Source of the DNA: Scylla paramamosain
Lineage: Eukaryota; Arthropoda; Malacostraca; Decapoda; Portunidae
NCBI RefSeq assembly: GCF_035594125.1
Contig: NC_087158.1
Span: 3,471,001 to 3,535,000, forward strand
Direction: 5' to 3'
DNA: 64,000 bases
Shown here: piece by piece, positions 26,201 through 42,332 of the stretch
Layout: each line of letters begins with the position of its first letter
How positions within the stretch are numbered: the stretch's first letter is position 1
Translations under genes and position numbers: made by a program
Notes under the pieces: model-generated
What the model saw: the letters and a program-made list of their open reading frames with translations, nothing else
What the model was told of the DNA's origin: nothing
The model's database searches: none

Positions 26201-29200
26201 GTACCTTTTGTGGGCCACCTCTCTATCACGTATAGCACTAGAACAAGCTGTGTTAAACCAAGGTTTAGAAGGTTTAGGTCGAGAAAAAGAGTGAGGAATG
26301 TACGCCTCCATACCAGACCCTATCACCTCTGTTATGCGCTCAGCACACAGAGACAGGTCTCTGTCACGGAAGCAGTTGTCATTACAAGTTAAATCAGTAA
26401 AATACCTCCTCAGTCCCCCCAATTACCAGAGGCAAAAAGCCAGAGGCACCTCTGCTTAGGGGGATCCTGAGGAGAGATTGGAGCAATAGGACAAGATACA
26501 GATATGAGATTGTGATCAGAGGAGCCCAATGGAGAAGAGACAGTAACAAGATAAGCAGAAGGATTAGAGGTTAGGAAAAGATCAAGAATGTTGAGTGTAT
26601 CTCCAAGATGGTTAGGAATACGAGTAGGTTGTTGCACCAATTGCTCTAGGTCATGGAGGATAGCAAAGTTGAAGGCTAGTTCACCAGGATGATCAGTAAA
26701 GGGAGAGAAAAGCTAAAGGTGGTGGTGAACATTGAAGTCTCCAAGAATGGAGATCTCTGCAAAAGGGAAGAGTCAGAATTTGCTCCACTTTGGAAGTAAG
26801 TAGTCAAAGAATTTCTTATAGTCAGAGGAGTTAGGAGAGAGGTATACAGCACAGATAAATTTAGTATGAAAGTGACTCTGTAGTCATAGCCAGATGGTGG
26901 AAAACTTGGAAGATTCAAGAGCATGGGCATGAGAGCAGGTTAAGTCGTTGCGCACATAAACGCAACATCCAGCTTTGGATTGAAAATGAGGATAGAGAAA
27001 GTAGGAGAACAGAAAAGGGACTACCGTCAGTTGCCTCATACACCTGTGTTTCAGTGAAGAAAAGAAGATGAGGTTTATTAGAGGAGAGATGGTGTTCTAC
27101 AGACTGAAAATTAGATCCAAGACCGTGAATGTTTCAGAAGTTAATGAAGAAAAATTGAGGGGGGTGTCAAGACACTTAGGGTTAATACCAGAAGAGCAGT
27201 CCAGCCTGGGGATATCTGTGGTCCCCTCCCCAGATGGGGACTCCGAGACTGGTGTAGGAGTCGCCACGATAACTTTGAATTTCGAGTGAAGAGTGTGTAT
27301 GTAATTAGGTGCTTGTAGTTTTGTGTGAAGGAAGAGAGTTGTCTTTAGAGGGCAGGCTGTGACTGCCCCCTTGTGTTGTGAGACAAAAAGGGAAATGTTC
27401 ACCAAGGTTTAATAAGTTTAATAAGCTGGGTTTAATAAGTTAACAGCAGCCCCTGATCCAATGCTTTAGACCTCAATGGGAGTTGTTTTGACACATGCCT
27501 ACTGCCTCCTCCTTGTATTGTTATATGAATGCATGTGTTGACCAGGCTGTTCTGAGCTGTTATCAGCTGTAATCCTATGATGAATTGCTATCTTCTAGGT
27601 GATGGGCCATTCCCTGGCGTGGTGGATATGTTTGGCAGTGCTGGGGGCTTGCTGGAGTACCGATCAGCTCAGTTGGCTTCACGTGGCATTGCTTCCCTTG
27701 CTTTGGCCTTCTTTGCCTATGATGACTTGCCTAAATCTCTTGAAGAGTTTAATATGGCATACTTTGAAGAAGCAGTGGAGTTTCTTCTAAAACATGAAAA
27801 GGTAATTACCTTAGAATACTGTCTATTATTTTCTTCTCAACCACAGGTTCAGCAACTGAAATTTGTACAACCACCCTGTTCATCAAATTTGGGATCAAGT
27901 TCATGTATCCACAAATTTCAGAGGATTATTGATAAAGACCATTTTATTTTGGTCTGAAAAGCCTTACTAACTCCATACCTACCCTCATCCTGTGGCCTTG
28001 CTGTTTTATGCTTTATACTTATTCTCATCCCTATTCCTTCCACCTTACTAATGTGAGAGTTAACCAGCATCTTCACTCTTTCATCCATTTTACTGGTGCA
28101 CTCTGGAATTCTCTTTCTGTTTCAGTTCTTCTTTCTCCTGAGACTGGAAGTGTGTCAGAAAAGGAGTACTAACTTACCTCAGGAACTAAATTGAGCAACT
28201 TTTTTATATACTTTGATTTTTGGGATCAGCAGGTTGAGTGAACTTTTCTTTTTCCTTGGCCATTTTCCTTGACATATAAAAAATAAATAGAATGAATAGA
28301 TAAATACAGGGAGGTCCCATTATACAAGCATCCATTATATGAGAACCCAATGATACAAGATGTGTAAATTAGGGACTATTTTCCTTATATGAATGCAAAA
28401 ATCTGATGGTACGAGCTTCTGTCCAAGGCAAATAAAATTACAAAGTTTAAAATGTGCACCTTACTGCACCCTCCCACTAGCACATCTAGGCTGTATGGTG
28501 ATGTACAGTGATTCAGATGTGCAGAGATGAGTTTTTGAGCACTGGAAGAGAACTGCACATCCCTCCCCTCTCCCCTATCTACCATGCATTCTCCTGCTGG
28601 TCCTTTTAAACTGAATTCAGTGTCTCTCAGACACCCCCACTCTTACTGCCTAACTGCTCATTATGATACTGGTACTCTGTCATCATTTTGCTTGCAAACA
28701 TATCAACAATATAGTACAAGTACAGTACTTTATGTGACTGATCGGTGTTTGAATGTGTTCCATTGTTACTATTGGTGTTTTTCATTCACTGTTTTTGGTG
28801 TGGTGTGTGTGTGACTGACCATGTGGGGTAGAGATTGTGTCTTATTTTGTCACTCATGCTAACTGTGCCTCCCAAGCAGCCATTGAGTTCCAGTGTGAGT
28901 CCTGGCAGTAAGGTTAAACAAGCTAGAGTACCAGTAACACTCACAAAGAAGGTAGAAATTATTAAGAGGCACAAGGCTTGAGCAAGTTACCCTGCCTGGC
29001 GTATGAACTTCACATTGTTGAGTGTTACGCACATTTTATGTGTTTAATCAATATGAAATATTCTTTTGTATATTGTTTTTTCTTTCAGGTTACATTATCA
29101 GCAGTTTTGTAATATAAACATAGTTGGTGTTTTGGTATTGTACATTTTAACTTGAAAATTCACCTTTGACAAGGGTTACAGAACCTAACCCCTTTTTGCC

Positions 29201-41020: not shown

Positions 41021-42332
41021 GTTGAGAAACCAAATATGGGTGTTATTGGAATAAGTAAAGGTGGTGACTTGGCTCTGTCTATGTCCACGTTCATCCCAGA
41101 AGTTACAGCTGGGGTTTGCATCAACGGCAGCATCAGCAACATCCAGTCTAGACTTAATCTACATGACAGGTCAATACCAGGATTAGATTTTGATCTCGGA
41201 AAAATAGAGGTATGTAAATATTTGATCCTTACAATATGGCAAGCAATACAAAATGCATTAATTTATTTTCTAATAATTTTGATCATGATTTTTTTGCTTA
41301 AAAGATTGAAATAAATACTTAATATCAACAGATAGTTGATGGTACCATGGACTGCTATGAATCTGTGAATGATCCGAAGGAATACCCTGAGACAATCATT
41401 CCCATTGAAAGGGCAGATGCCAATTTCCTCTTCCTGGTTTCATGTGACGACAGAAACTGGAAATCCGAAATGTTTGCAGACCTCGCCGTGGAGCGCCTCA
41501 GACTGGCTGGCAAAACAAACTATACAGTGAGTGGATTAAAGTATTGGAAATGCACTAAAAATGTTTCTTGAGTATGAAAAATCAAGAGAGTGGTGGTAGA
41601 AGCAAGGGGAGCAGCATGGCAGAAGAGGGATAGAGATACTAGTATTGCAGGAACAGTGAGTGCATTTTGACAGGTGCAGGACAGGGAGGAGATGCCAGTT
41701 GAGTAGAGTTGACAATTTTTGCATCGTCAGGAAATAAGTTTACATATCTGTTCAGTCTTTCCAGCATGTAATTTAGATAAATTTTAAATATAATTGGGAA
41801 AATTTTGAACCCTTCAAGCACTCTCCTTAACATTGCTTTCCATGTGGAAAACCTGTCTCTTGTACTGGTTCTCATTTATCTTCCCACTTTTCTTTGCACT
41901 CCAGTTGCTTCACATGCATCAAAAAACATATTCATCTTCAGAATAGTCTTACTGAAAGCTTGTATCAATCCTGGGTTAATGCAATCTGCCAGACATTTTT
42001 TTATGAATATTACTCACTACCCTGATAAAAAAAAAAATAAATAAATAAAAATATAAATATAAATAAATAAATAAATAAATACAAATAAAAAAAAAAAATA
42101 TGAATTTTCATTGTTTACGCTGCAGGTCAACAAGTATCCTGGTGCTGGCCATCTACTGGAACCTCCATACTCCACTTTCTGCTGGGCTTCCTACCACAAA
42201 ATGATCAGAGCAAGCATGCTATGGGGAGGCTCCTTGAGGCCTCATATAGACGCCCAGGTGCACGCATGGAACACATTATTGACTTTCCTTGGCAAGCATC
42301 TCAGGAATCAAACTAGCAAGGGAAAACTTTAG
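41021..42332 (+). CDS. Second thioesterase C-terminal half, three exons (arm A)
   Basis: Exons 41021-41209 (63 codons), 41332-41526 (65) and 42126-42332 (68 plus stop) are all phase 0 with canonical splice sites (acceptors CTCTCTAG, TCAACAG, GCTGCAG; donors GTATGT, GTGAGT). The 196-residue product keeps the hydrolase triad: GISKGG (Ser), SCDDRN (Asp), [11 protein letters not shown] (His), then [16 protein letters not shown]. It is diverged from exon 5 at 30881 but collinear. No N-terminal exons were found in 31.5-41 kb. Because exon 4 at 27599 ends in phase 0 and this tail starts in phase 0 at the same protein position, it could be an alternative 3' end of the upstream gene; otherwise it is a truncated second gene. 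Confidence 0.85.

What the first reader, a model, noticed from the sequence alone, without database searches (positions are those of the whole stretch)
27599..42332. Two interchangeable 3' exon sets for one thioesterase gene?
Exon 4 (ending 27801, phase 0) can join in frame either to the single-exon tail at 30881 or to the three-exon tail at 41021. Both tails start at the same protein position and keep Ser-Asp-His. No N-terminal exons lie between 31.5 and 41 kb, and the second tail is intact with canonical splice sites despite being surrounded by TEs. An alternative last-exon choice would give two enzymes with one N-terminal domain and different catalytic halves. The other option is a second gene whose front was lost or lies outside the assembly order.
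Basis: partly seen in the sequence, partly recalled or inferred. Interest (0 to 1): 0.75.

Follow-up and report, generated by a model that had tools for sequence, protein, structure and literature searches.

The report
One crab gene, two enzyme endings
A mud-crab fat-metabolism gene has one front half and two different back halves, both carrying the enzyme's active site, and similar forms appear in shrimps, lobsters and mantis shrimps, so one gene may do work that vertebrates give to several.

Summary
The window is from Scylla paramamosain (inferred). Splicing exons 13690-27801 to T1 (30881-31519) gives, letter for letter, the NCBI protein 'isoform X3'; splicing them to T2 (41021-42332) gives 'isoform X4'. 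The junction is thus in public gene models; I saw no paper describing it. The genome search found N-terminal-domain matches only in this gene and at three loci with their own tails.

In seven species T1-type and T2-type forms share a front: identical in six, 277/282 in Portunus. Tails group by type, fronts by species. This fits one gene whose two tails predate the stomatopod-decapod split. T1 tails end [S/C]-x-L (21 of 21), a peroxisome-signal-like ending; T2 tails do not (0 of 28), but a stricter pattern does not separate them. Homarus and Macrobrachium rosenbergii also switch the last T2 exon. RNA reads were not available; compartment and substrate roles are inferred.

The parts
7044..7091 (+). 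Exon 1: start codon and presequence-like peptide MWHHSAKGRPCLTRLI; phase 0, donor GT
   Evidence: tblastn with Portunus N-termini; P0117 carries a near-identical peptide joined to the exon 2 peptide; in-frame splice
13600..13710 (+). Exon 2: rest of the presequence plus internal Met (13690), the start of isoforms X3 and X4
14101..14255 (+). Exon 3, Bile_Hydr_Trans domain
14820..14979 (+). Exon 4, Bile_Hydr_Trans domain
22783..22951 (+). Exon 5
27599..27801 (+).
30881..31519 (+). Tail T1: single terminal exon, Ser-Asp-His, ends RSNL
   Evidence: equals the end of P0102 (isoform X3)
31619..31624 (+). AATAAA after T1 (second at 31695)
41021..41209 (+). Tail T2 exon a (nucleophile Ser)
   Evidence: equals P0001 (isoform X4)
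41332..41526 (+). Tail T2 exon b (Asp)
42126..42332 (+). Tail T2 exon c (His, ends SKGKL); the same protein position is itself alternative in Homarus and Macrobrachium rosenbergii
42344..46934 (+). LTR element starting 12 b past the T2 stop; LTRs 42344-42870 and 46408-46934 (518/527 identical); TAATG at 42339-42343 and 46935-46939; first AATAAA after T2 is in LTR1 at 42764
61010..62422 (-). T3: decayed inverted copy of the T2 tail; acceptor AG gone, frame broken, His motif damaged; lacks the LTR insertion

Best explanation
This is one type-I acyl-CoA thioesterase gene (window 7044-42332, + strand) with two alternative 3' exon sets. The pre-mRNA either joins exon 6 to T1 and ends at the poly(A) signals near 31.6-31.7 kb, or skips T1, joins exon 6 to the three T2 exons and ends further downstream, probably in the inserted LTR. 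The two proteins share the N-terminal domain and the start of the hydrolase domain, but have different nucleophile, acid and histidine segments and different C-termini. Shown: the sequence, exact match to two annotated isoforms, no other front found, the same swap in annotated proteins of other malacostracans. Inferred: that poly(A)-site choice drives the switch, that both products are active, and that T1 sends the enzyme to peroxisomes while T2 and the presequence serve other compartments.
For: Spliced X3 and X4 equal P0102 and P0001 letter for letter; both are listed with a contig of 31211005 bases, the length of the window's contig. The genome-wide Bile_Hydr_Trans search gave 5 matches at 4 loci: this gene, and three loci with their own BAAT_C tails. 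Fronts of T1-type and T2-type forms are identical in Scylla 236/236, Homarus 261/261, M. nipponense 235/235, M. rosenbergii 226/226, Palaemon 235/235 and Oratosquilla 258/258; the pairs compared part at, or one or two chance-shared residues after...HEK/QEK. Tail tree: T1 (18 rows) one branch 98/99, T2 (21 rows) one branch 91/92. Front tree: types mixed, 12 changes against a shuffled mean of 13.4. Source 'lgn' lists front-plus-T2 proteins (P0003, P0004, P0009, P0016, P0023) and front-plus-T1 proteins (P0105, P0106) whose longest contig is 1490-1971 bases, too short for the Scylla introns, hence cDNA-like (inference, contig DNA not seen). AlphaFold models of both forms have pLDDT 91.7 and 86.7, best PDB matches human ACOT2 and ACOT4.
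Against: No RNA reads were available; X3 and X4 are NCBI gene models whose read support I could not see. P0001 also lists source 'lgn', but that contig was not shown. Portunus fronts differ at 5 of 282 residues, one in the domain part. The M. rosenbergii T1 form with the shared front is an unnamed 'lgn' protein, given to that species by identity. Outside Scylla I saw proteins, not genomic DNA, and separate T1-bearing forms with diverged fronts do exist in carideans (P0116 72-74%, P0107 86-87%, P0113 95% identical). The branch that unites T2 (91/92) is below the tool's starred level. The strict PTS1 pattern does not separate the tails: 10 of 21 T1, 14 of 28 T2. P0117 shows a frame-broken join of exon 5 to T1.
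Confidence: 0.9

Rival explanations
1. T2 is the 3' half of a second, tandem thioesterase gene whose front exons were lost or misplaced; the X4 model is an annotation artefact that borrows the front of the first gene.
For: T2 is 10 kb from T1 in repeat-rich DNA, bounded by a TA tract and an LTR element; T3 shows that tail pieces do get copied without a front.
Against: No spare front in the genome search or in 40 kb of flank; Portunus T2 is 89% identical; front/T2 unions are listed in seven species that also have front/T1 and occur on short contigs of source 'lgn'.
Confidence: 0.06
2. T2 is a dying cassette in Scylla: still spliceable, but no longer producing a useful enzyme after the LTR insertion beside its stop codon.
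For: The LTR element starts 12 b past the stop. With Portunus as outgroup, 6 of 17 T2/T3 residue substitutions fall on the T2 side, 9 on the T3 side and 2 are unclear; a two-residue gap is also on the T3 side (the last residues were not compared). T2/T3 pN/pS is 0.71 over 189 codons, both lineages together.
Against: T2 frame, triad and splice sites are intact, whereas T3 has decayed over the same time; the LTR supplies an AATAAA at 42764.
Confidence: 0.12
3. In the other species the pattern reflects tandem complete genes whose fronts are kept identical by gene conversion, not alternative splicing.
For: Panulirus has two T1 proteins listed with contigs of one length and fronts 149/166 identical; isopod P0006 is two copies in one model; carideans have further T1-bearing forms with diverged fronts.
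Against: Complete amino-acid identity over the front in six species, with T1 and T2 tails only 36-51% alike within species, and a sharp switch at one place; in Scylla the DNA has one front.
Confidence: 0.08

Closest known systems
Type-I acyl-CoA thioesterases of vertebrates (ACOT1-6 cluster; solved ACOT2 3HLK and ACOT4 3K2I)
   Same: Same two Pfam domains (Bile_Hydr_Trans and BAAT_C), same fold, Ser-Asp-His kept.
   Different: In human and mouse each enzyme is a separate gene in a cluster, with human ACOT1 cytosolic, ACOT2 mitochondrial and ACOT4 peroxisomal (PMC10982514, passages; PMC8919083, passages). Here one front serves two tails.
Drosophila GSTO2 (GSTO2A and GSTO2B from one gene)
   Same: Two enzymes share exon 1 and use different 3' exons with their own 3' UTRs (PMC4195677, passages).
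   Different: Another enzyme family; no change of targeting signal seen in the passages read.
Insect muscle myosin heavy chain gene
   Same: One gene with alternative exons where most other animals have a gene family (PMC2257972, start of abstract in a search listing).
   Different: Mutually exclusive exons of a motor protein, not last-exon sets of an enzyme.
Anopheles delta-class GST gene with a common 5' exon and alternative 3' coding exons (recalled; one search listed no paper)
   Same: Common N-terminal exon, several C-terminal exons (recalled).
   Different: Another family; not checked here.

Membership tests
Type-I acyl-CoA thioesterase / BAAT family | Bile_Hydr_Trans domain followed by BAAT_C domain | tested here: met
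   Both isoforms above Pfam cut-offs: BAAT_C 218.6 (X4) and 190 bits (X3), Bile_Hydr_Trans 125 bits in both
Type-I acyl-CoA thioesterase / BAAT family | Ser (Cys in BAAT, recalled), Asp, His catalytic residues | tested here: met
   S248, D339 and H373 invariant in the 34-row alignment A1; S248, D342 and H377 in the 28-row A2
Type-I acyl-CoA thioesterase / BAAT family | Acyl-CoA hydrolase activity | not testable with these tools
   No biochemical data
Alternative last exon gene with homologous tails | One front, two or more complete 3' exon sets in one stretch of DNA | tested here: met
   Window DNA: one front, two intact tails
Alternative last exon gene with homologous tails | Both joins present in annotated proteins | tested here: met
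   P0102 (X3) and P0001 (X4); gene models, read support not seen
Alternative last exon gene with homologous tails | RNA reads across both junctions | not testable with these tools
   No read archive available
Peroxisomal (PTS1) protein, for T1 | C-terminal tripeptide like known PTS1 | tested here: inconclusive
   T1 ends SHL, SQL, SNL, SSL, CHL, SKL or SML in 21 of 21; a strict PROSITE-like pattern (recalled) is met by 10 of 21 T1 and 14 of 28 T2; PMC8919083 (passages) names SNL, SHL and SML as PTS1 and SQL as weak, and also gives PTS1-like ends that do not target

The most novel reading that the evidence does not exclude
In malacostracan crustaceans one type-I thioesterase gene replaces a vertebrate-style gene cluster. 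Alternative 5' starts (presequence or not), alternative catalytic tails (T1 or T2) and, in some species, an alternative last T2 exon (GKL or RCVR-type end) together set the compartment and substrate range. This modular catalytic half has been kept since before the stomatopod-decapod split.
Probability: 0.45. Interest if true: 0.72.

Novelty: new variant of a known kind. Interest (0 to 1): 0.58.

Why it matters
Swapping the whole active-site half of an enzyme by alternative last exons, kept across a deep crustacean radiation, gives a natural test of how splicing and gene duplication substitute for each other. It also bears on how one gene can place thioesterase activity in several compartments, and warns that expression measures of this gene in aquaculture species may mix two enzymes.

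Tried and rejected
A second gene with its own front: not favoured, since no spare front was found. T3 as a third usable tail: rejected because it is antisense, its acceptor AG is gone, its frame is broken and its His motif is damaged. A second form of the last T2 exon in Scylla: three such peptides from other species found, at meaningful scores, only 42126, T3 at 61218 and T1 at 31277 in the window. A clean PTS1 split with the strict pattern: not met. The [SAC]-x-L pattern was chosen after seeing the ends, so 21/21 against 0/28 is descriptive, and some rows are near copies (four Petrolisthes T2 rows). Left out of that count: P0042 and P0045 (truncated T2 ends, parting after SNFE at the same exon junction), P0119 (truncated T1), isopods and non-crustaceans. 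T1/T2 labels were assigned by me from hit lists and sequence; 18 T1 and 21 T2 rows are in the tail tree, from which P0098 was dropped because its motif was not found. Ten paper searches were made (55 and 62 asked for glutathione transferase precedents). Long results were listed only in part (for example 10 of 364), and none of the listed titles and abstract starts described these tails. Passages were seen of PMC7522259 (not relevant), PMC10982514, PMC4195677 and PMC8919083; PMC12561672 and PMC6711964, two Scylla long-read papers, have no 'thioesterase' or 'ACOT' in the main text. Genome-wide counts of T2 DNA or T2 protein copies could not be obtained; only the BAAT_C search bears on that.

Full report
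What is in the sequence. The window lies at C8:3471001-3535000 of a 1.21 Gb genome. The shared exons are 13690-13710 (coding part of exon 13600-13710), 14101-14255, 14820-14979, 22783-22951 and 27599-27801. Joined to T1 (30881-31519) they give P0102, isoform X3; joined to T2 (41021-41209, 41332-41526, 42126-42332) they give P0001, isoform X4; both matches are exact. An upstream exon, 7044-7091, adds a presequence in frame, which would make forms of 494 aa (T1) and 478 aa (T2). A 274-aa protein, P0117 (98% identity over 73% of the query front), carries a near-identical presequence; read by eye against the T1 frames, it goes from exon 5 straight to T1, with exon 6 skipped and out of frame.

Why T2 belongs to this gene. 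A Bile_Hydr_Trans search of the whole genome gave five matches at four loci: this gene (two exons) and C30:6835058, C30:14755072 and C43:5768511. Each of the last three lies within 5 kb of its own BAAT_C tail. The first look gave 8 candidates, all scored; weakly conserved split exons could be missed. tblastn found no further front or tail exon in 30 kb downstream and 10 kb upstream of the window.

Conservation. Searches with the T2 region (101 hits), the T1 region (21 hits) and the front (206 hits at E up to 1e-45, 120 listed) returned forms with both tail types in seven species: Scylla, Portunus, Homarus, Macrobrachium nipponense, M. rosenbergii (its T1 form is an unnamed 'lgn' protein assigned by identity), Palaemon and Oratosquilla. 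Fronts are identical in six; in Portunus 277 of 282, with one difference in the domain part. The pairs compared part at ...HEK/QEK, the residue encoded at 27799-27801; a chance-shared first tail residue shifts this by one or two in some pairs. In the tail tree (46 rows, one further row dropped) T1 and T2 each form one branch, 98/99 and 91/92, the latter below the tool's starred level; isopod tails lie beside T2. In the front tree (44 rows) the same labels are mixed among species. Both trees fit T1 and T2 existing before stomatopods and decapods parted; the date, Palaeozoic, is recalled. Against a simple picture, carideans also have T1-bearing forms with diverged fronts (P0116, P0107, P0113), and no T1 form was listed for Eriocheir, Cherax or Procambarus; loss and missed detection are not distinguished.

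Further layers. Homarus X3/X4 and M. rosenbergii X2/X3 keep the first part of T2 and swap the His-bearing last exon, at the protein position of the Scylla intron 41527-42125. Palaemon and Oratosquilla each have two T1-type tails plus T2 on an identical front. T1 tails end SHL 8, SQL 6, SNL 3, SSL, CHL, SKL and SML 1 each (21 of 21 [SC]-x-L). T2 tails end GKL 13, GKI, VKL and EKL 1 each, or in residues unlike PTS1 in 12 of 28. PMC8919083 (passages) names SNL, SHL and SML as PTS1 and SQL as a weak one, and also gives PTS1-like ends that do not target.

Structure. AlphaFold models: X4 mean pLDDT 91.7, pTM 0.90; X3 86.7, 0.87. The front/tail boundary (residues 236/237) falls after helix 221-233 and at or before the strand (237 or 242 to 247) that leads to the nucleophile, so the swap exchanges the whole triad. 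Best PDB matches for both are human ACOT2 and ACOT4, with E from 1.2e-47 to 8.2e-54.

Local history. T2 and T3 match from 40935-42343 to 62422-61010 at 93.9%; in a finer alignment of 41005-42343, 1274 of 1320 ungapped columns agree, with 42 gap columns. The match resumes past the LTR element, 46935-47499 to 61014-60395 at 83.7%; part of this stretch is LTR-like sequence on both sides and may be independent. T3 shows the site without the element, TAATG followed by CAATTGC, so the inverted duplication most likely came first and the LTR insertion later. LTRs are 518/527 identical. The first AATAAA after the T2 stop is at 42764, inside the LTR; T1 has AATAAA at 31619 and 31695. T3 is decayed. The T2 branch has gathered six residue changes since the duplication, against nine substitutions and a two-residue gap in T3, with two positions unclear, so relaxed selection on T2 in Scylla is not excluded.

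What is known. X3 and X4 are in public annotation. None of the listings of ten paper searches described these tails (calls and limits under tried and rejected). The architecture has a precedent in Drosophila GSTO2 (passages). What I judge new is the ancient swap of the catalytic half of a type-I thioesterase across malacostracans.

Noticed in passing
61010-62422: Inverted, decayed copy of the T2 tail; similarity resumes beyond the LTR element (46935-47499 against 61014-60395).
   Followed up: yes
42344-46934: LTR element of BEL/Pao appearance (label by eye, not classified) with TAATG target duplication; LTR-like copies also at 47093-47562, 50360-50893 and 60393-60838.
   Followed up: partly
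62500-64000: Minus-strand end of a LINE-like element (RNase H-like reading, label by eye) directly in front of T3.
   Followed up: no
40344-40901: Short element with inverted ends of about 64 bases (78% alike) next to the TA tract in front of T2.
   Followed up: no
24300-27400 and 29600-30640: Similar repeat copies (by eye) in the introns on both sides of exon 6.
   Followed up: no
L002, L003, L004: Three other BAAT_C loci in the genome; in L002 and L003 the tail and the exon-6 equivalent lie in one open exon, so they lack the intron at the swap point.
   Followed up: partly
P0117: Protein 98% identical over 73% of the Scylla front, in which exon 6 is skipped and T1 is joined out of frame.
   Followed up: partly
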